A stretch of DNA of 64,000 nucleotides from the NCBI GenBank assembly GCA_024345305.1, contig BRON01000017.1, positions 248,001 through 312,000 of the forward strand, given 5' to 3'. Under the pieces are notes generated by a model. The model searched no databases, was not told where the DNA came from, and saw nothing but the letters and a program-made list of their open reading frames with translations. Made by a program: the position numbers and the translations under genes. This document shows, in pieces, positions 32,462 to 43,206 of the stretch (within the stretch, counting starts at the first letter, position 1; the number at the start of each line of letters is the position of its first letter). Origin of the DNA: Mrakia gelida (lineage: Eukaryota; Basidiomycota; Tremellomycetes; Cystofilobasidiales; Mrakiaceae).

Positions 32462-34072
32462 ATGTCCGCCTCTCCTACTCCTCAGCTTTCTCCACCACCT
32501 CTCTCTCCTCGTCCATCCACCCCTCCACCCCCAGCTCCCAAGCTCTTCGATCTCGCCAACATCTTTGACTCTCCCACTCCGCCTCGACCTTCTCATCCAG
32601 CTCAACAAGCGAACCCTCTCTTCTACTCTGCTTCCCCTTCCGCCTCTCCCCAGCCCGCAAATGGCAGAGCTGCCTCCCCCTCTACCCTCGCCAAAGCCAT
32701 GAACCTCTTTGATGGCATGGACGACGACGACGACGAGCCTGAAGGTCCACCGAAGATGTACGGAGCTGGAGCAGGAGCTGGGGCAGGAGGAGGAGGAGGA
32801 GGAAGGCAGGAGTCGCCGAACCCTTTCGCATCCTTGTTCGAGGATGGAGCGGGTGCAGGAGGGGAGGGAGAAGGAGAAGGAGGTCCTAAACCCGTTGCTA
32901 AGAGGGTCGTGCCCAAGATCGATGCTGCTAGGTGAGTCTCTTCTCGGGACGAAGGAGGAAAGGAAGGAGGGATGGATGAGCTCGACGCTTTCCGTTCCCT
33001 TCCCTCTTCCTTGCTGACTCTCCTTTCTCCGTGGCTCGTAGACTCCTCGGTCCCAACGGTCTTCCAGCTCTTATCAAAGACTCGAAGAACATCAAGCTCA
33101 AAGGAAAGGGGCACGAGGTTCGTTCACCTTCCTTCCCTCCGTCCCTTCCCTTCTTTGAGCTCAACGGACGCGCGCGACATTCAGCTCATCTCTTCTTCGT
33201 CGCGTTGTGGTTTCCTTTCGAACAGACGGAGGATCTGAAGAGCCTACTTGGACACTATACCCTCTGGGCTCATCAACTCTTCCCGAAAACAAAGTTCAAG
33301 GATACCGTCCTGAGGGTCGAGAAGGTGTGCAGGGAGACGAGGATGCTGGTGAGTGCTTCGTTTCCTTCGAGCTCTTCTCTTCCATCCCTTCCCACTCAAA
33401 CTAGATCTCAATCCAATTCGAGACTCGAAGCTGACATCTCTCCTTCCCTCGTCTGATCGTTCTCGTCACCTCCAGAACGCCCTCTCCCAATTCCGAGACG
33501 AAGCCAAACCCCGTCCAGCTCTTTCCCCTCCTCCCGAATTCGACCTTCCACCACCAGCCAACCCTCCCCCTTCCCGCTCCAAATCACGATCACGGTCCCA
33601 CTCCCCATCCCTCAACGAACGACCCACCCAGCGCCGCCGAGTCGTCTCGGACGACGACGAGGAGGAAGACGAGGACGCTCTCATCGCAGCTGCAGAGAAC
33701 GACGCTCGCTTCACCTCAGCAGGAGGATCGTCTTCGACCGCGAGGAGAGCGGATCGAGAGGAGGAGGAGGACGACTTCGACATGGACGAGCTCATCGCTG
33801 CTGCTGAGGCTGAGGCTGCTCAGGAGGACACGAGCAGGAGCGCGACGAATGCGAAACCGACGGCTGCGACGACGACGACGAACGAGGAGGACGAGTACGG
33901 CGAGGATGACTGGGGAGCGTTGGATGATTTCGATATGGAGGCGGCGGTGGCTGATGCTGGTAAGGGGAAGGGGAAGGAGGTGGGAGGGGAGGACGCGTCG
34001 ACGAAGAAGGTGGTGCCGCAGGCGGACGACGACGAGGATGAGGATGGGTGGGATGCTTTGGATAATATGTGA
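32462..34072 (+). CDS. CSM3: Replication fork protection protein Csm3/Swi3 (TIPIN)
   Basis: ATG at 32462 in GCCATGTCC. The N-terminal 140 residues are Pro/Ser-rich with acidic and Gly-rich stretches. The Swi3 domain then begins (RLLGPNGLPALIKDSKNIKL, KGKGHE) and continues over two introns as TEDLKSLLGHYTLWAHQLFP and KTKFKDTVLRVEKVCRETRM, which is diagnostic of TIPIN/Swi3/Csm3. The C-terminal exon is Arg/Ser- and then Asp/Glu-rich, with repeated DE-DAL(I)AAAE motifs and a final DEDGWDALDNM. Stop TGA at 34070-34072. The protein pairs with Tof1/Swi1/Timeless to stabilise stalled forks and signal to the checkpoint kinase. Confidence 0.92.
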
Positions 34073-34364
34073 GGAGGTTGGGATCCGTCTTTCACACGTC
34101 TACTGGAGGTTGAGCTTTGAAAAGAAGAGAGCGGGAGAGAAAGGGACGGCGAGGGATTGAAGGACGCGTCGACTGTTGTTGTACCAGAACGAAGGCCGGT
34201 TCTTCTTTGTCTCTTCGAGCTCTGTTTGCCTTGACTCGTTCCTTGATCTAGTACGATTCATCGGTGGGAATTTCAGAAAAAATCTGCTCCTGTATCGAGG
34301 GCGAGGGAAGGCTACACGAGTCCGCTCCAAACCGCCACCTTCTCCTCTTTTCCTCCTCCTCTCC

Positions 34365-35644
34365 ATGGAAGCACCCATCGTCTCGTCTCTCTGGATCGAC
34401 GAGCCTGAGGTACACGCCTGCTCGAGATGCATGATCAACGTCGCTGAGGATAAGTCTTGCTCTTCGTGCAGCCAGGTCTTCTGTGAGTATCTTGGGCAAG
34501 AAAGATGAACGAAGGCAGGAAGACTCGAGCTCACCATCCCTCCCCACTCTCTTCTCCGCTTCTCCTTCAGACTGCAGCAAAGAACGCCAGACGAAGGCAC
34601 GTAGCCTTCGTTCTCACGCGTTCTTATTGCTTCTCTGATCCTTTTATTTCTCCTCAACAGGACTGGAAGGGACCCGAGGGCCACAAGCGAATCTGCTCCA
34701 AGCTCGCCAACGGAGGAGTCGTCCCTCTGAACGGTGAGCTCTCATCTCTTTCGTTCTCTTCCGCTGCTGTAAGAGCTGATGTCTCACTTCAGCTATCGAA
34801 GCTACAAAGAACAACTTGATGGGTACGATAGAGCTCAATATCCTTCTCATCGAGGCTCTTCATCGACAAGGTCGAAGCGTCCTCAAGTCCGAGCCCGTGG
34901 GTCTCTCGCTCGCTCGTCCTCGCCTTACCTTTCCTCCTCGAGCCAGGCTTACGAGAACTTTGTTTTCGCGCAACTAAGGGATCGAGTTCCTTCACCTATC
35001 TCTCTACGTTGAGCCTGGAACGAGCACTCGTTTTCTGCTTCGAGCTCATTCCTTCGACGTGCGACCTTGGCCCACTGTTCGTCGCTCCAGCTCCTCTTCA
35101 CTCGTCCTAAAGTCGAGCTCTAACGTTGTTGCACGTGTCTCCCTCTCAGGCTCCTAGCCCACTCGATCAGCTGAAGCATCAGTTCAGTCACGAAATCAAG
35201 CAGAATGCTACCGCGATGGGAGAATATTCCGTCGAGGTTCGTCCACTACCTCTCCAACTCTTCTTCTTCTTCTCTTTCTTCTCGTTACCTCCCTCTTCTC
35301 ACCATCCGAACGACCTCCTCGATCGAAAGCACAGGTCGTCGTCATCTCATCAGGATATACTGTTTATCTCTCGATCTTTTGATCCAACGAGACTCTCGTT
35401 TTCCAAACTGACGCGCATCGCCTCGTGCTGCTCGTCTTTCCTCGCTCTACCCAACGACAGTCATCGCTTCGTCATCCTCCCAGCCATCGTCACAAAAAGC
35501 TACATCGATAACTCTCGATCTACTCCCGGCTGGAGGGCGATGCTGGCTCCCTACCTGGAAGGAGATCAAAGAGGAGCAGCACGACCTGGAGGGAAGTTCT
35601 ACAATGTGGAGGAAGGGACAACGGGCGAGTTGACTGAATTCTAG
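34365..35644 (+). CDS. MYND-type zinc finger protein
   Basis: ATG at 34365. Exon 1 gives CSRCMINVAEDKSCSSCSQVF; the next exons complete the MYND pattern with YCSKERQ, DWKGPEGHKRIC. The finger therefore spans residues about 19-60 and four exons, with all Cys/His ligands present except that the usual Cys-Gln of the YCS-C-Q element is ERQ. A helical region follows (NNLMGTIELNILLIEALHRQ). The 3' half is hard to splice by eye. Good candidates are APSPLDQLKHQFSHEIKQNA and a last exon HRFVILPAIVTKSYIDNSR ... GGKFYNVEEGTTGELTEF ending at 35644. MYND fingers bind Pro-rich peptides. No SET domain is seen, so a scaffold or regulator role is likelier than a methyltransferase. Confidence 0.7.
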
Positions 35645-35792
35645 GTCTTGAAAACACTTGAATTGTTACATCAGATCTTTCACACTTCTGCTCGACGAGC
35701 ATTGAAAGGCTCATGCGTAAGGCGTTGTACGGAAAAACAAGATACGAGTCCAACGACCGACGACGCGTCGTTCGTCTCCTTCCCGCCCTCCG

Positions 35793-38700
35793 CTACCTCC
35801 TCCTCGGATCCCTCTCGTACTCCCTCCCATCCCTCTCCCTGTATCTCTCGTCGTGCATCATCGGCGGCGGTGGAGGAGGAGCGTACGCTCCTCGTTCATC
35901 CCTCATCATCCTCGGATCCTCCCCACCTCGCGACATCCCCCTCTCGTCCCTCGCAGGCGCGAACATCCTCTCGTCCCTCATCGGAGGAGGCCCAGCAGGA
36001 GGTCCAGCAGGTCTCGTCAACTCCCTCACCACAAGATCGATCTCCTGCCTTCGGTCCCTCCACGCCCCCCTCGCTTCCCTCCTGATCTGGATGAGTCCTC
36101 CAAGGACGCTCGACCGTCGTTCGGCTTCGTCGATAGCGAGGCGTTGGTCCTCGAGGGCGTTGTGGAGAGTGGTGAAGAGGTGTTCGAAGGATTGAAGGAC
36201 GGAGTGGGTGGTGGGAGGGAGGGAACGCATCCGGTCGATGAGGTCGAGGGTTTTGGTTTGGTTTTGAGAGCGGAGGTTGACGACGAGCTGGAGAAACGAG
36301 GAGAGCGGAGCTTTGTCAGTCAGTTGAGCTCGAGGAGACGGGAGGTTCCTCTCAAGGTGGCGTTGAAAGTGAGGAAGGGAAGAATCGACTAACCTGACTC
36401 TGATCCATCATCCCCGAGTCCAGAACGTCCAACACATCCAAGACGAACCCTCTCCTCTCCTCGATCCCGACCTCGTTCCTCTGCAGCACCGCCTCCCACT
36501 CAGCCACATCGTCCTCCGCCTTGGCTCTGATCCTCCTAGCGTTCTCCAACGCTTCCTGCTCTCGAAGGATCGACTGTCCGAGGTGAGCGACGGCGAGACT
36601 CCAATCCGCTGGATCTCGAAGGACGACGGAGAGACGGTCGTGTTGGTCGTCGAGGAGGACGGCGCAGGCTTTGAGGTCGGTGATGAGACGCGTCATTTCG
36701 GCGATGGAGGTGGGCATGGAGGAGGAAGGGGGAGGTGGGGGAGGAGGATCGTTTCGGTAGGAGGAGGAGGACGCGACGGGAGGGTTGAGACCCTGGCGAG
36801 GAGGGAAGGAGTTTTGGCTGTTGTTGTTGTTGTTGTTCGATCGAGGAGGAGGATGATAGGTCGTTGATGGTGGTGGTGGGGCTGGAGTGGATGCAGTAGT
36901 TGCCGAATATCGACCGTTGGCTCCTGCAGCAGCGTTCCTCGCCTTTTTCGGAACCCTGTTGCCCGGTCCAGGAGGGAATATCTCTCGACCGATGAGGAAG
37001 CGTTCCGAGGGAGTCATCTCTTCGAGAGGTTCAGGAAGGTTCGAGGGTGGTGGACGTGGTGGAGAAGGTTGGACGAACGAAGGTCGAGCGGCCACTGGAC
37101 TGCGCGACCTCTTCCTCGGATCTCGACGGTTCGCTTGACCTGATTGGGGAGTCGTCTCGACTTCGAAGTCGTCCTTGAAGTCCTCGGGTCCTCCTCCTCC
37201 TGATCCAGCGTCATCGTCGGTGGTACGTCCAGTGAGAGCCCACTCGGGAAGGAGAGGGTAGAGGGAAGCGATCGCTGCTGGGACGAGTCGACCGACTTCG
37301 TTGTGAGCGAGTCGAAGGGTTCCTTGCCATCCTTTCCAGACTTCGCAGTCTCGAGTTTCGGCGTAGCGAGAGGGAAGAGTGACGGGTTTGTCGTCGAGCC
37401 ATTGGATGGCTTCCTCGGTCATCTTGGGGTCCGAGAAGGAGACGATGGCGAACCGGTCGTCGAGAGGAGGGATCGAGATGATGTCGATGGAGGTGCTGAG
37501 ACGAGAGTTGCGAAGAGGTTTTAGCAGAGCGACTCGAAGGAGGTAGAGCAGGAGAAGATTTGAGGCTCACAGTTGTCCGAACTGTCCGAAGAGAACCTCG
37601 AGATCGCCAGACGTGGCAGCTTCGGGGAACCTGGACGCGAAGGAAGAACGAAGGAACGAAGTCAGCTCAGCCGCGGGAATAGAGGTCTACCTCTTCTCAT
37701 CTCGAGACCGAGTTCAACTAACCTCGCAACAAACAACGAGCCAGCCCCAAAAGTCAACGAATCATCCTTCAACAACGCGTCCTCCATCTTCCCCTCCTCC
37801 TCTCCAACCTCTCCCTCCTCCCCAGGTCCCCCATCGACCTTCTTCCTCTGCACCGTCCTCGACAGAATGATAGGCATATCCTTCGGTCCCTCCTCCGCCA
37901 CTACTGCTGACGCTCCCCCAGGAAGCACTCCTCCTCGTCGTGCGAGCACCGTCGTTGTCGAGCCAGCGACGGCTGTTCGGTCGGCGAGTTCGTTTCCTGT
38001 GATGCCGACGTGACCTGGGATCCAGACGATGGAGACTTTGACGTTTGGGTGGAGGGTGAGAGTTCGTTCGAGGGTGGAGATGAAGAGTTGGGATTGGTAG
38101 CGGATTCCGGAGTCGCTGAAGGAAGGGAAGGGAAGGGACGCGTTGAAGGGAAAACGTGAAAAAGTCAGCGTTCTGTTGATTTCAAGGTCTCGTTTGGGCG
38201 GGATCCACAAGAGGGAGAGAGCGAAGGGAGAAGCTGCACTCACAGGAGCGTAATAGCAGCCTGCGAATCCGAAAAGATCAACAACTCCTCCTCCCTCAAC
38301 TTCCCAGCACTGGCAAACGCTTCCAAGGCCTTCCTCATCCCTCCCATCTCCGCATCCGTAGGATCACACATCCCCAACTCCTCCCTCAACTTCCTCCCCA
38401 CCGTCCCTTCCTTCTGCCCAGGCGTTCGAACCCACTCGACCGCTGCTCCCCACGCCCAGCCGTTCTTGAACGAGCCGTCCGAGTAGTAGATCGCTGCTGT
38501 GGATTTCTCGAGGAGACGTTTGTGCATGGAGATGGCGTCGGATTTCTTGGTGGCGATGAGTTTGGTGATGGGGAGTTTGGTGGGGGAGGTTTCGATGTCT
38601 GCGGCACCGAGAAGAGGAGTGGGAGAGAGAGCTTAGGTTGAAGCTGAACGAAACGAGACGCGCCGTCGAGAAGGAACGGGCAGTAAAGAACGCACAGTGA

Positions 38701-39446
38701 ACCCTCGTCATCAACCCAGCAACAACCTTCCAAACGGGTTCATGAAGAGTGTACTTCTCGTCTGTGAGATAGTGAACGAACGCGACGTTCGAAGTCAGCT
38801 CTCTCTCTTTCTCCTTACTCCTCACCCTCCCTTGCCTCCTATTTCGTTTGAACTCACCCTGATACAGCGCATGCCTCAAATTATCCTGAATCGTCCCTCC
38901 GGCGGACTTCTTCGCCTTCGCCTTCGCTCCCTTGGGAGCTCTCGGTTTCGGAATATGACTGATCTCGAGTCCGACCTTTGGAGGACCGAAGATGGTTGGT
39001 GGTTTGGGAGGGTTGAGGTACGCGCTGAGATCCTTTGAGGGTCCTGGTACCGCTGTCGGTGCTGGAGTCGGGGCTGGTGGAGGGAAGCGTGGGAGAGTGG
39101 GAGGAGGGCGAGCCAGGGTAGGTTGAAAGGGAGGGAAACCACCTGGTGGAGGAGGAGGAGGGCCTCCGCCGCCCAGGAAGGGAGGAGGAGGAGCACCTGC
39201 GAAGAGGGTTGGTGGTGGTGGTGGTGGTGGTGGTGGAGCGCCGTTTGATGGGTTGAAGACGGTTTGAAAGGGGAGGGTTGGCGGAGGAGGAGGAGCAGCG
39301 AGGGCGAAAGGGTTGCCGACGGGGACAGGGAGGGTTGGAGGCGGTGGTGGGAGTCGAGCTGCTGGGTTGGCGGATGGAGGGGAGGTGTGGAAGGAAGAAG
39401 GAGCGTAGGGTTTCGAAGGGTCGTATTCCTCTTCTGCTTCGGCCAT
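35793..39446 (-). CDS. RNase H domain - RRM fusion protein with Pro-rich N-terminus
   Basis: ATG at 39446 on the minus strand. Exon 1 encodes about 195 residues with formin-like poly-Pro runs and a basic patch (KGAKAKAKKSAGG). Exons 3-4 carry an RNase HI-type domain: YYSDGSFKNG (Asp), DAEMGGMRKALEAF (Glu), LIFSDSQAAI (Asp), VSIVWIPGHVGITGNELAD (His, Asp). All catalytic positions are kept. The exon with the His/Asp motif continues into SLTFGAGSLFVAR, which after a phase-2 intron joins FPEAATSGDLEVLFGQFGQL and then DDRFAIVSFSDPKMTEEAI. These form one RRM (RNP2 LFVARF, RNP1 RFAIVSFS). A Pro/Asn-rich linker and a long coiled-coil (residues about 750-950) follow, ending with Arg/Met/Asp-rich repeats. 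The stop is at 35793. The RNase H resembles that of non-LTR retrotransposons; no reverse transcriptase is present. Confidence 0.8.
37700..38530 (-). other. RNase H-like domain within the fusion gene
   Basis: Marks the exons that hold the D-E-D-H-D catalytic set, interrupted by one intron after SDSQAAITLL (donor GTGAGTG, acceptor TTCAG). The motif WIPGHVGITGNELAD is characteristic of LINE-type and bacterial-type RNases H. Between His/Asp and the RRM lies a Val/Gly/Glu-rich linker of about 90 residues. Confidence 0.8.
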
Positions 39447-40090
39447 GGCCACGGGAGGGGAGACGATCTGAGGGAGTGAACGGGGAGAAGCAAGGGAGGG
39501 AGGAGGGAGAAGAGCGAGGAACGCGAGTCAGTTTGGCGTCATTTTTACAAGGTCGCTGGTGAGTGAAGAAAGTTTCTAGGTTGTGTAGATTGTGAGCTCG
39601 TTCAGGGTCAGATCGAGGTCAGGAAGGAGGGAGAGGAGAAGGGCGAAGGAGGAGTTGACCTCGTGAGCTCGAGGAACTTTTCAGCTTCAGAGCCAGCGAG
39701 ACTGAAGCTTTCCTTGGAGGATCGAAGACCTGTCGATATGAAGGACGGAGAGGAGTACTAACGAGGTAAGTTTTGTGAGCTCAGTGAGCTATGAGCTGTC
39801 AATAGAGGCTCTCGTTAGGGCAAGGAAGGGAGGGAGGGAGTCGAAGATCTGAGCTCGTCGTCCGCTCGTTAAGCTCGAGGTTGATCCGCCTTTGAGAGGT
39901 GGACGGGAGAACGCCGGGTGTCGATATCGATGTTCAGGGTATCTTTACTCGTGAGAGCTCGGATGTAAGAGTCCAAGAGCAGTGAGGAGAGGGAAGGGGG
40001 AGGGGTCGTGAAGCAGAGAGACAGGGAAGGGAGAAGATGGTCGCTTGAAGTCACTCGTGTTTCGACGCTTTCGTTCCCTCTTCAACCGTC
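39447..40090. promoter_or_regulatory. Divergent intergenic region, RNase H-RRM / TFIIA-gamma
   Basis: 644 bases with no coding-like frame. It is unusually rich in GAGCTC (several copies between about 39594 and 39875), often within GTGAGCTC, a string that also starts many introns here. Leader introns are therefore possible on the + strand. Must contain both promoters. Confidence 0.4.
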
Positions 40091-41121
40091 ATGGCGTCTC
40101 AGGGAGCTTTCTACGAGTTCTACAGAGGATCATCGTAAGTAGACATGCATCGTCTCTGTCAACAGAAGCAGGAAGAGCTGACCTTTCCCCTTGTTCTCTC
40201 TGTAGGATCGGGACTGCCCTGACCGACTCTCTCGACGACTTGATCCAAGCTGGCCAGATCACTCCTCAACTCGCTATGCGAGTACTCGTACAGGTGCAGC
40301 CAAATTCGTCTCTCCTCGTCACTCCTCCTTGATACCTCCTTCCACCCGAGTGAGCGTAGAACGAGAGAGAGAGAGAGGTGAGGCAGAGGCTGAACCCAAC
40401 TCCCTTCGTTGCTCCTTCCCTCCCTTCCCCTCCTCGACCTCTCCTACCCACCTGCCACCTTCGTCTGTGATCCTCGAATCAGTTCGACAAGAGCTTGGCC
40501 GAGACTATCGCTAAGCAGGTCAAGAACAAGACGGTCATCAAGGTCAGTCCTCGTACTTCAGCTCTCGTAGGGACCCGCCGACGTCGAGCTGACCGATCCC
40601 ACCTCCTCCTCCTTGCTTCTGACCTCGCAGGGAAGTCTGAGGACCTACCGACTCTGCGACGACGTCTGGACGTTCATCATCAAGAATCCCACCATGAGGA
40701 CAGAGACAACCAGTGCTGGAAACGGGTTAGTCCGACTGCTTCCGTCGCTTGAGTTCAGGGAGGTAGTGGCGAGGCGCACGACGGAAGAACGTTCGGATGC
40801 GAGCCGTGAGCGAGCAGCTCGCTCGTTCTCTGCGGTTTTGCTTCTCGGTGGGAAATGGGCGTGAGGATGGCTAAAGGGCTGTCTCGTCGAGGCTCTTCTC
40901 GGAGTAGACCGCCTTCGAGCGATCCATCGAAACAACAACAACGAAACTCAAGCTCAAGCTCAACTGACTCTCCTCCCTCCCTTCCCTCTCCTCCTCCTCC
41001 CTCCTCTTCCTTCGTCTCCAAATCCAACAGAGGAGACGTCATCACCTGCGACAAACTCAAGATCATCGCTTGCAAGAACGGAAACGCCGATGCCGAAGCT
41101 GCCAGCTCGAGTCGAAGGTGA
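40091..41121 (+). CDS. TOA2: TFIIA small (gamma) subunit
   Basis: ATG at 40091. Five exons read MASQGAFYEFYRGSS, IGTALTDSLDDLIQAGQITP, QLAMRVLVQ, FDKSLAETIAKQVKNKTVIK, GSLRTYRLCDDVWTFIIKN and finally GDVITCDKLKIIACKNG. They match TFIIA-gamma end to end (YELYR-S--G, SLDELI---QITPQLA, FDK, F-GSL-TYR-CD-VWTF, V-K-KIVAC). The length of about 115 residues is normal for the family. The last intron (about 40733-41029) is by far the longest at about 300 nt. The subunit forms the beta-barrel and four-helix bundle of TFIIA with the large subunit and stabilises TBP on the TATA box. Stop TGA at 41119-41121. Confidence 0.93.
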
Positions 41122-41472
41122 TCCGCCTCAGCCTCACCTCGTCTTGCTTCGCGTACGTCGCCTTTCTCTCTATCTTTCCGCCCCTCGTAGTTCACAGCTA
41201 ACCGATCCTTTCCCCCTCGTGTACACAGACCCTTCTCGGCTGCTCTCTTTGTTTCTTAGTCTCTCTCGCTCGCGTCTCTCGTACTCTCCGCATCTCGTCT
41301 CTCTCTCTCTCTCTTTGCTTTCTCAACCTCGTCCCAGTCCCGTCGTTACGTTCTCTCTCTCCGTGCCATCCTTGCTTTAAACCTCACTTACCACCACACA
41401 AGTTGTATCCATGCCTTTCGTTCTCTTTCCCAGCCCTTACCCAGATCACTCGTGCTCGTCTCCGAACACATC
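41122..41472. other. Convergent intergenic spacer
   Basis: About 350 pyrimidine-rich bases (on the + strand) with runs of CTCTCT between the stops of TOA2 and the small acidic gene. Holds 3' UTRs; no gene seen. Confidence 0.5.
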
Positions 41473-41943
41473 TCATCGCTCCTCATCTCCCTCCGGCTCA
41501 AACTCCCCCTCCTCCCCCTCCTCCTCCCTATCCTCCCCATCCCCATCCAGATCTAGACTCCCATCCTCTCCTTCATCATCAGCATAATCATCCCCTGCTC
41601 TCTCCAAATCATAATCCCCTTCCTGCTCTCCTCCTACATCGTCCTCGTACGTCGGGCGGGCGTCCTCTTCACCCTCTTGGACGACGCCGTACTCGTCGAA
41701 GAGAGTCAAAGGGTGCGGGGAAGGAGAGGGGTTGGAGGAACGGTGTTGGAGGGTTAGTTCTTCGATTTCGGAGGTGTCGAGGGGTTCGTTGGTTGGGGTT
41801 TGGGATTGGGAGGGTTGGGAGGAGGGCTGGGAGGAGGAGGGAGGGAGGGAGGCGAGGGAGGGGGGGGGTTCGACTAGGCCCGAGGGGATGGGTTCGCTGG
41901 GTTCTGAGGTAGTGGGGATGGATTGAGGTGCGGAGGATGCCAT
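41473..41943 (-). CDS. Small, highly acidic protein, unidentified
   Basis: Single-exon frame of 156 codons from ATG 41943 to the stop at 41473. The first half is Ser/Pro-rich, the middle has a short ordered-looking element (EIEELTLQHRSS, LTLFDEYGVVQEGEED), and the second half is Asp/Glu-rich with Tyr spaced in DDY and YED. No known domain is visible. It is probably a disordered nuclear or chaperone-like acidic protein. It shares a 161-base divergent promoter with the DJ-1 gene. Codon bias and a clean ATG support it, but expression evidence would be needed to rule out a shadow frame. Confidence 0.6.
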   Translation of the reverse strand: MASSAPQSIPTTSEPSEPIPSGLVEPPPSLASLPPSSSQPSSQPSQSQTPTNEPLDTSEIEELTLQHRSSNPSPSPHPLTLFDEYGVVQEGEEDARPTYEDDVGGEQEGDYDLERAGDDYADDEGEDGSLDLDGDGEDREEEGEEGEFEPEGDEER

Positions 41944-42104
41944 TGTTGAGGTTCGAGCGAGGGAGGGGTAAGATGTAGTTCGAGTTCAAACGAGAAGGGA
42001 AGGGGAAGGTTGAGCTCACAATCAAGCCGACGTCACTTCAGTTTCGAGTTCGACCTTCCATCTCCTTCCCGTTTTCTCTTTTTCGTCCCAACCCCTCACC
42101 CTCG

Positions 42105-43206
42105 ATGTCTCCACCCAAAACAGCTCTCATCCTCCTCGCTCACGGCTCCGAGGAAATCGAATTCACAACGGCTTACGATCTTCTCGCTCGAGCTGGGATC
42201 CAGGTCACCTCTGCCTCGGTCGGGGAGGTGGATGAGAAAGGAGCGGTCAAGCTTAGTAGGGGAGTGAGGATCTTGCCTGATGTTAGGTTGGAGGAGTTGG
42301 GGGAGGAGGTGAGTGGTCGTCCTACCCTTTCTGTTTCTCTTCTCGAGCTTTGGAAGAAAGAGGAGGGAAGGAGACGAACGAACGAACGAAGCTCACCTCT
42401 CCTCCTCCCAATCTCCTCCCTCCCTCCCCAGCAAACGCATTCCTTCTCCCTCCTCGTCATCCCAGGAGGTCTCCCAGGAGCCACCACTCTCGCTTCCTCC
42501 TCCCTCGTCACCTCCCTCGTTCGCTTCTACTTCGGAAGACTCGACACCTTCGTCGCTATGATCTGCGCGGGACCGCTCGTGGCGTTGGAGAGTGGGATTT
42601 GGGAGGATCAGAAGAGTTGGATACAGGGGAAGATTAGATTGACGAGTCATCCTAGTGTGAAGGGGAAGTTGGAGGAGAGTGAGTACTGTTTGCGAGCTTT
42701 TGGACTGGGAGGGTGAGAGGGGACAGGGAGGGAGGAAGACAGGAGGGGAGGGGGAGGGAGGGAAGATGGGACGACAAGATCGCTGACTCTTCCTTCCTTC
42801 TCGCTCTGATCCGATCGCATCTTCCAGTGTTCAACTACGTCGAAGAAGACGTCGTTGTCGATGGGAACCTCATCACTAGGTCCGTAGCTCTCGAGTGTCC
42901 GTCACTCTTGCCTTCGACCTCAACGTCGAGCTGACCCGTCTGCCTTCTCCCTCCCCACCTTTATCCCTCACCTCTTTCTCCATCAGTCGAGGTCCCGGAA
43001 CCTCTATCATCTTCGTAAGCACCCTTCATATCCCTATCCCTCTTCCTCTCACCTCGGGCCTCTCACGCTGACCCCCGTCTCGTCTCGTCTCTCTCCTCCC
43101 TCAACGCGTCTCGCTCGCTCGGTCCCAGTCCCTCGCGATCATCAAAGCCCTCCTCGGTCCAGCAAAGGAGAAGGAGATTAGAGATCCTCTCATGATCCCT
43201 GCTTAA
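42105..43206 (+). CDS. DJ-1/PfpI family protein
   Basis: ATG at 42105. The sequence opens TALILLAHGSEEIEFTTAYD and LLARAGIQVTSASVG, the DJ-1 start with the conserved Glu in SEEIE. After an intron come LLVIPGGLPGATTLASS and VAMICAGPLVALESG, with the nucleophile-elbow Cys in ICAGP. The last exons give VFNYVEEDVVVDGNLITS, RGPGTSIIF and LAIIKALLGPAKEKEI ending at TAA 43204-43206. Four to five introns. The residue after the nucleophile that is His in many bacterial relatives is not evident, as in eukaryotic DJ-1. Family roles are protein or glyoxal deglycation and oxidative stress defence, in the cytosol. Confidence 0.88.

What the first reader, a model, noticed from the sequence alone, without database searches (positions are those of the whole stretch)
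35793..39446. RNase H of retrotransposon type fused to an RRM: possible domesticated element enzyme
Seen: one minus-strand gene encodes a complete RNase HI-type domain (Asp in YYSDGSF, Glu in DAEMGG, Asp in FSDSQAA, His/Asp in WIPGHVGITGNELAD), and the very same exon runs into RNP2 of an RRM (LFVARF), completed across a phase-2 intron. Known: WIPGHxGIxGNExAD is typical of LINE (non-LTR) RNase H. No reverse transcriptase, endonuclease or LTR is nearby. Inference: an RNase H captured from a non-LTR element became a host protein with RNA-binding, Pro-rich and coiled-coil parts, perhaps acting on RNA-DNA hybrids at defined transcripts. I know of no described protein with this architecture.
Basis: partly seen in the sequence, partly recalled or inferred. 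Interest (0 to 1): 0.88.

Follow-up and report, generated by a model that had tools for sequence, protein, structure and literature searches.

The report
Fungal RNase H fused to RRM
A fungus-like genome carries one intact gene that joins an enzyme domain for cutting RNA in RNA-DNA hybrids (most like those of mobile elements) to an RNA-binding domain, and the joined protein is kept in related sequences, so it looks like a real cell protein of a kind I found no description of, rather than a transposon leftover.

Summary
Minus strand 39446-35793 is one 7-exon gene (six GT-AG introns, 1019 aa) with a complete RNase H domain (Pfam E 2e-8) and an RRM (3.8e-7); one exon carries the last catalytic residues and RNP2. 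I found it once in its genome, beside a TFIIA-gamma gene, with no reverse transcriptase hit in the window. Protein searches found 17 family members: nine with the RNase H part, eight with the C-terminal part only. In 7 of 7 relatives that reach that point the RNase H runs on into the RRM's first strand; one ORF (P0010) matches both halves. Catalytic residues are kept in every sequence covering them except P0010, which lost two: a likely pseudo-nuclease branch. The domain is nearer to LINE-type RNase H than to cellular RNase HI, in a small sample; a separate RNase H1 is present. Best reading: a LINE-type RNase H aimed by an RRM and a helical C-terminus at RNA-DNA hybrids on nascent RNA. Gene structure and conservation are shown; activity, location and targets are inferred. 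A new arrangement of known domains.

The parts
35793..39446 (-). whole coding gene, 1019 aa; exons 39446-38858, 38761-38696, 38598-38244, 38115-37723, 37630-37571, 37495-36394, 36287-35793
   Evidence: Open spliced frame with six GT-AG introns; Pfam RNase_H and RRM_1; all five matches of a 399-residue query in the genome fall here
38858..39446 (-). exon 1: EEEYDPSKPY motif and Pro-rich N-terminus (residues 1-196)
   Evidence: 64 Pro in residues 1-184; a YDP(S/A)(K/R)P motif also in P0001, P0003 and P0007
38498..38891 (-). conserved stretch just before the RNase H domain (residues 186-252; spans introns 1 and 2)
   Evidence: 61 of 67 residues identical to P0001, 49 of 67 to P0003; strands and a helix in the model of P0003
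37959..38497 (-). RNase H domain (residues 253-389; exons 3 and 4, split by intron 3 at 38243-38116)
37980..38479 (-). catalytic residues D259 (38479-38477), E302 (38350-38348), D329 (38269-38267), H372 (38012-38010), D382 (37982-37980)
37723..38115 (-). exon 4: RNase H C-terminal part, linker and RNP2 (LFVAR) in one uninterrupted frame
37631..37722 (-). intron 4, phase 2, inside the RRM just after RNP2 (GTTAGT...CAG)
   Evidence: 7 of 7 relatives that reach this place leave the family sequence or stop there
37387..37736 (-). RRM (residues 464-524; RNP2 LFVARF, RNP1 DRFAIVSF; exons 4-6)
   Evidence: Pfam PF00076 E 3.8e-7; coordinates
36955..37017 (-). conserved motif MTPSERFLIGREIFPPGPGNR (residues 648-668)
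   Evidence: alignment A7
36415..36717 (-). conserved helical C-terminal region (residues 748-848)
   Evidence: alignments A7 and A9; long helices in a model of low overall confidence (mean pLDDT 51.6)
35793..36287 (-). exon 7: residues 856-1019, ending in an Arg-rich tail (...RYRERDGREYERDPRRR)

Best explanation
A host gene, found once in the genome and rich in introns, makes one protein: a Pro-rich N-terminus, a LINE-type RNase H with its own conserved N-terminal extension, an RRM and a helical C-terminal region. SHOWN: gene structure, both domains in one frame, conservation of the fusion and (but for P0010) of the catalytic residues, a better score against LINE-type than cellular RNase H in a small sample, pieces of a separate RNase H1 gene and an RNase HII-family match elsewhere in the genome. 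INFERRED: the RNase H was captured from a non-LTR element long ago, joined to an RRM and kept; it cuts the RNA of RNA-DNA hybrids (R-loops or reverse-transcription intermediates), the RRM and the C-terminal helices standing in for the hybrid-binding domain of RNase H1 as the targeting part, most likely on nascent transcripts in the nucleus. My odds by step: one conserved fused protein 0.95; active RNase H in this species 0.8; LINE origin 0.75; hybrid removal on nascent transcripts as the main job 0.45.
For: Gene model and domains. One frame across the join in the window and in 7 of 7 relatives that reach it: P0001, P0003, P0004, P0005, P0006, P0009, P0010. P0010 matches both halves in a single ORF (hhalign E 4.9e-27 over 362 columns against the fused alignment A3; 8.9e-14 over 91 columns against the RRM/C-terminal alignment A7). 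RNase H identity 76-87% to P0001, P0003, P0004 and P0006 (110/144 to 125/143) against 24/57 and 25/54 in the linker for P0001 and P0003. Catalytic residues, counting the window and the relatives that cover the position: D259 8 of 9, E302 9 of 9, D329 9 of 9, H372 7 of 8, D382 8 of 8. An HMM of five family sequences scores LINE-type P0002 and P0017 at 49.6 and 50.6 bits, own RNase H1 at 6.5 and E. coli RNase HI at 5.6. RNase H fold in the model of P0003. RNase H1 pieces with a hybrid-binding domain and a PF01351 match. The RKRSRSP stretch and the Arg-rich tail resemble nuclear RNA-processing proteins (my reading of the sequence).
Against: P0010 lacks D1 (G) and H (N), so at least one lineage seems to keep the fold without the full active site. 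Pfam itself confirms little outside the window: of nine family members given to it, RNase_H is found in P0001 and P0003 only, not in P0007, P0008 or P0010, and RRM_1 in none of the nine (most are half-gene calls that begin or end inside a domain); the RRM of the relatives rests on homology to the window protein. NCBIfam gave nothing over its cut-offs. RNP1 (DRFAIVSF) keeps only one of the two usual stacking aromatics, so RNA binding may be weak or replaced by protein binding. The LINE link rests on 2 LINE-type and 2 cellular sequences, the own RNase H1 row being exon pieces joined by eye, which may depress its score; the best Foldseek row is an archaeal RNase H1, and RNase H1 chains match the family profile over a longer stretch than the HIV chains. 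No activity, RNA-binding, location or expression data. No relative came with a named organism.
Confidence: 0.55

Rival explanations
1. Restriction factor: the domesticated RNase H, guided by the RRM, destroys RNA-cDNA hybrids of resident retrotransposons (18 Ty3/Gypsy-type places were listed in this genome) rather than R-loops.
For: Intact active site; 18 of 20 RVT_1 places lie beside an RT_RNaseH match, 14 of the 20 in open frames of 1427-1493 aa, so a target may exist.
Against: The core is highly conserved rather than fast-evolving as arms-race factors usually are (rule recalled). Nothing ties the gene to the elements.
Confidence: 0.15
2. The RNase H is mainly a binding or scaffold module in an RNA-processing complex (as the RNase H-like domain of Prp8 is), and cleavage is incidental or lost.
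For: P0010 has lost the D259 and H372 equivalents yet keeps the rest of the domain and the RRM half. A conserved N-terminal extension and helical C-terminus suggest a partner surface.
Against: All five residues are kept in every other relative that covers them, which is not expected of a pure scaffold.
Confidence: 0.2
3. Two neighbouring genes or an annotation artefact: an RNase H fragment of an element next to an RRM gene.
For: Only sequence, no RNA, was available; the relatives are partial gene calls, and no relative shows the whole protein.
Against: One exon crosses the join, in the window and in 7 of 7 relatives that reach it; P0010 matches both halves.
Confidence: 0.03
4. The RNase H is not LINE-derived but an old cellular RNase HI paralogue that lost the basic protrusion and converged on the LINE motif.
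For: The tree has only 11 sequences; no LINE-type RNase H was listed in this genome, though two RVT_1 places were not examined; the nearest outsiders are only 30-32% identical; the best Foldseek row is an archaeal RNase H1.
Against: Own and E. coli RNase HI score about 6 bits against about 50 for the LINE types and carry a protrusion that the family lacks.
Confidence: 0.2

Closest known systems
Eukaryotic RNase H1 (hybrid-binding domain PF01693 plus RNase H PF00075)
   Same: A type 1 RNase H with a separate nucleic-acid-binding domain in one host protein
   Different: RRM instead of the hybrid-binding domain, on the other side of the enzyme; no basic protrusion; long Pro-rich and helical parts. 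The genome has pieces of a separate RNase H1 gene (L035)
[quoted passage not shown] the Puccinia protein P0002
   Same: Nearest outside sequences; share DSQAAI and PGH...GNE.AD blocks
   Different: No reverse transcriptase in this gene, found once, multi-exon, followed by an RRM
Fungal host-TE fusion genes (Oggenfuss, Badet and Croll 2024, PMC10799480; abstract, outline and passages seen)
   Same: A TE-type domain joined to an ordinary cellular domain and retained
   Different: The terms RNase H and RRM do not occur in the main text; the supplementary lists were not seen
Prp8 RNase H-like domain
   Same: An RNase H-fold domain of likely retroelement origin working in RNA processing (PMC5603734, passages seen)
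   Different: Described there as without enzymatic activity; here the five catalytic residues are present
RNase H-like superfamily family F.8 (PF00929) members with an RNA recognition motif (PMC3985635, passage seen)
   Same: RNase H-like fold together with an RNA recognition motif
   Different: An exonuclease family (recalled), not type 1 RNase H

Membership tests
Type 1 RNase H (PF00075) | Profile score over the curated cut-off | tested here: met
   35 bits against 25.8
Type 1 RNase H (PF00075) | Catalytic D, E, D and H/D set | tested here: met
   D259, E302, D329, H372, D382 present in the window protein
Type 1 RNase H (PF00075) | RNase H fold | tested here: met
Type 1 RNase H (PF00075) | Cleavage of RNA in RNA-DNA hybrids | not testable with these tools
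   needs protein
Eukaryotic RNase H1 | N-terminal hybrid-binding domain (PF01693) | tested here: not met
   No such match in the protein at E up to 1; the genome's nine PF01693 matches lie on C2, C3 and C9, not C17
LINE (non-LTR) element | Reverse transcriptase with the RNase H | tested here: not met
   Protein has RNase_H and RRM_1 only; no RVT_1 hit in the window
LINE (non-LTR) element | Endonuclease domain near the gene | not tested
   No endonuclease family was searched in the window or genome; the protein itself has none by Pfam
LINE-type RNase H domain | Nearer to LINE RNase H than to cellular RNase HI | tested here: met
RRM proteins (PF00076) | Profile score over the curated cut-off | tested here: met
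   30.3 bits against 20.7 for the window protein; no RRM_1 match in the nine relatives tested
RRM proteins (PF00076) | Aromatic RNP residues for RNA stacking | tested here: inconclusive
   RNP2 LFVARF keeps its F; RNP1 DRFAIVSF keeps one of two stacking aromatics (consensus recalled)
Domesticated (host-retained) TE domain | One copy, retained and constrained in relatives | tested here: met
   One locus; 9 relatives with the RNase H part; RNase H 119 of 137 and linker 24 of 57 identical to P0001
Domesticated (host-retained) TE domain | Purifying selection by dN/dS | not testable with these tools
   The relatives' DNA was out of reach (metagenome scans capped at 0)

The most novel reading that the evidence does not exclude
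A transcript-directed RNase H: a LINE-derived enzyme whose RRM and helical C-terminus select which RNA-DNA hybrids are cut, kept beside RNase H1 and H2 as a third cellular RNase H system, with one lineage (P0010) turning it into a non-cutting hybrid-binding protein.
Probability: 0.3. Interest if true: 0.82.

Novelty: new variant of a known kind. Interest (0 to 1): 0.62.

Why it matters
Cells control RNA-DNA hybrids mainly with RNase H1 and H2, neither known to choose transcripts through an RRM (recalled). A conserved RNase H joined to an RRM, beside both, would be a separate host solution built from a mobile-element type of enzyme, and a natural template for an RNase H aimed at chosen RNAs. 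The P0010 branch gives a natural active-versus-inactive comparison.

Tried and rejected
Idea that this is the fungus's only type 1 RNase H: rejected. The PF00075 genome search did not list the canonical gene, but its hybrid-binding domain led to it: the minus strand of L035 carries the HBD and the VVVYTDGS, DSQYCIKC and HVKAHAGLDGNEAAD pieces. I did not build a full gene model of it. Lesson: family searches of this intron-rich genome miss genes, so absences in it are weak.

Origin from the resident Ty3/Gypsy elements: not supported; the PF17917 search listed 21 places and none is this gene. Of the 20 RVT_1 places, 18 have an RT_RNaseH match beside them; the other two (C6:1237696, C1:2140141) were not examined, so a LINE in this genome is not excluded. 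LINE endonuclease families were not searched.

RNase H-less relatives of the RRM half (to show what the enzyme was joined to): none shown. The 8 hits (six of them part of the query) are C-terminal half-gene calls that cannot show whether an RNase H precedes them; P0018 is probably on the contig of P0007.

Absence of named fungi among the relatives: the three protein searches each scored only about 8000 candidates within length limits, and I ran no control on how well the database covers fungi, so I draw nothing from it.

Scans of viral contigs and of prokaryote genomes (two peptide patterns) gave no relative. The C-terminal half gave no PDB match by sequence and none with E under 5 by fold (weak model). 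Alignments A4, A5 and A6 were misaligned by MAFFT and not used for searches; A2 was not used because of its Pro-rich columns.

Literature: nine searches, of which I saw titles and starts of abstracts (one search listed 20 of 36 papers, 20 of 44), and passages of four papers gave no description of a type 1 RNase H joined to an RRM. Supplementary files were not read.
Full report
WHAT IS THERE. On the minus strand a gene runs from 39446 to 35793 in seven exons (39446-38858, 38761-38696, 38598-38244, 38115-37723, 37630-37571, 37495-36394, 36287-35793) with six GT-AG introns of 75 to 128 nt and an open frame of 1019 codons. Pfam finds two domains, RNase_H at 253-389 and RRM_1 at 464-524, both over their curated cut-offs, and nothing else at E up to 1. 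Exon 4 is one uninterrupted reading frame that holds the last two catalytic residues of the RNase H (H372, D382), a linker and the first strand (RNP2) of the RRM.

SURROUNDINGS. Upstream and divergent lies a TFIIA-gamma gene (ATG at 40091; PF02268 E 2.6e-23); downstream and convergent a gene with a MYND finger (E 9.8e-10). No RVT_1 or RT_RNaseH match falls in the window, and no repeat of 40 nt or more lies within 33000-43000. In the genome (34.9 Mb, 25 contigs) all five matches of a 399-residue query fall at this locus. The genome also has pieces of a canonical RNase H1 gene with a hybrid-binding domain (L035) and one RNase HII-family match, E 4.7e-9. So the gene is a further RNase H-type gene beside the usual ones. 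Of 20 RVT_1 places, 18 lie beside a Ty3/Gypsy-type RT_RNaseH match (compared by coordinates); the other two were not examined, so a LINE donor is not excluded.

RELATIVES. A single-sequence search, limited by length to 560-1783 residue proteins, gave P0001 (E 7.7e-120) and a Puccinia LINE protein P0002 (E 2.2e-4). A profile of the window and P0001 gave 16 proteins at E up to 0.1: P0001, P0003-P0016, and P0017, a LINE-like RNase H outside the family (E 1.6e-3). A search with the RRM/C-terminal half gave 8: the six in its query and two new ones, P0018 (2.3e-76) and P0019 (9.5e-73). Leaving out P0002 and P0017, that is 17 family members: nine with the RNase H part (P0001, P0003-P0010) and eight with the C-terminal part only (P0011-P0016, P0018, P0019). 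Each search scored only about 8000 candidates. The 17 carry the source codes jgi, ena or lgn, which I take to mean metagenome or read assemblies, and look like gene calls that ignore introns, which would explain why they are partial. Among the nine, seven reach the end of the RNase H (P0001, P0003, P0004, P0005, P0006, P0009, P0010), and all seven run on into GS(L/V)F(V/I), the start of the RRM, and stop or leave the family sequence where window intron 4 lies. Their letters after that point fit a phase-2 intron with a GT donor; P0003 would need an unusual one (GTC). This is inference, since I could not read their DNA. P0010 is one ORF that matches both halves (hhalign E 4.9e-27 and 8.9e-14). 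P0007 and P0018, one N half and one C half, share source code and contig length 7654 and are probably on one contig. Pfam alone would not have shown the family: of nine members tested it finds RNase_H in two and RRM_1 in none.

CONSTRAINT. Against P0001 the window protein keeps 61 of 67 residues before the domain, 119 of 137 in the RNase H and 24 of 57 in the linker; against P0003, 49 of 67, 107 of 138 and 25 of 54. The catalytic residues, counting the window and the relatives that cover the site, are D259 8 of 9, E302 9 of 9, D329 9 of 9, H372 7 of 8, D382 8 of 8; both losses (D to G, H to N) are in P0010, the most divergent member (the letter shown there for P0009 at D329 comes from the start of that partial protein and is not counted). 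So the active site is kept in most of the family and probably lost in one branch. The RRM region and the C-terminal helical region are also strongly conserved.

WHERE THE RNASE H COMES FROM. An HMM of five family sequences scores the two LINE-type domains at 49.6 and 50.6 bits and the two cellular RNase HI at 6.5 and 5.6; the family lacks the basic protrusion that the cellular enzymes have; in an 11-sequence tree (six of the family, the other four left out as partial or redundant) the family including P0010 is split from the rest with support 0.99, and the cellular group from the LINE types with 0.99. Structure does not settle it: the best Foldseek row is an archaeal RNase H1, followed by retroviral and a mycobacterial one. 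By profile the first solved relatives are HIV-1 RT RNase H chains (E 2e-6, over about 70 positions), with RNase H1 chains at 6e-5 over a longer stretch.

HOW IT MOST LIKELY WORKS. A type 1 RNase H with a complete active site, lacking both the hybrid-binding domain and the basic protrusion that help RNase H1 hold its substrate (recalled), joined to an RRM and a helical region that would supply substrate choice. With the Pro-rich head and the Arg-rich tail this looks like a nuclear RNA-processing protein that removes hybrids on nascent RNA. That last step is inference. The RRM keeps only part of its usual RNA-stacking residues, and P0010 suggests that cutting is not essential everywhere, so a scaffold or hybrid-binding role is the main rival.

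KNOWN OR NEW. Nine literature searches showed no such protein in the listed titles and abstract starts. The fungal host-TE fusion screen of 1237 genomes (PMC10799480; abstract, outline and passages seen) does not hold the terms RNase H or RRM in its main text; its supplementary lists were not seen. The review PMC5603734 (passages) describes the RNase H domain of Prp8 as inactive; PMC3985635 (passages) notes RNA recognition motifs with a different RNase H-like family. PMC4641428 (passages) notes that ORF1 proteins of superfamily I LINEs carry non-canonical RRMs and that ORF2 of the element described there has RT and RNase H, so there the RRM comes before the RNase H and in another ORF, unlike this gene. 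Verdict: a new arrangement of known domains, conserved and therefore real; function unproven.

Noticed in passing
window 40091-40719 (+), partial: TFIIA-gamma gene in divergent orientation next to the RNase H-RRM gene; about 640 bases lie between the two start codons
   Followed up: partly
window 34365 to about 34730 (+): Gene with an N-terminal MYND finger, convergent; one small exon appears to end in a GC (not GT) donor
   Followed up: partly
L001 and L002 (G000:C2:440133-442342, -): Neighbouring pair of RNase H-like matches; in the copy aligned (L001) the catalytic residues are missing: possible pseudo-RNase H genes
   Followed up: partly
L034 (G000:C9:1154588-1155055) and L036 (G000:C3:379279-380093): At least two hybrid-binding domains (PF01693) in each locus, and no RNase H domain that my motif scan could see: possible HBD-only proteins
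   Followed up: partly
G000, e.g. C10, C15, C21, C23, C25: 18 RVT_1 places beside RT_RNaseH matches (Ty3/Gypsy type); 14 of the 20 RVT_1 places lie in open frames of 1427-1493 aa, several in neighbouring pairs about 6 kb apart
   Followed up: no
P0001, P0003-P0006 against window introns 1-3: P0001 and P0003 read straight across window introns 1 and 2, P0003-P0006 across intron 3, while P0001 keeps intron 3 as read-through: introns gained or lost within the family, unless their gene caller spliced some
   Followed up: no
window 38891-38498 (-): Residues 186-252 before the RNase H are about as conserved as the enzyme and folded in the model of P0003, but belong to no Pfam match
   Followed up: partly
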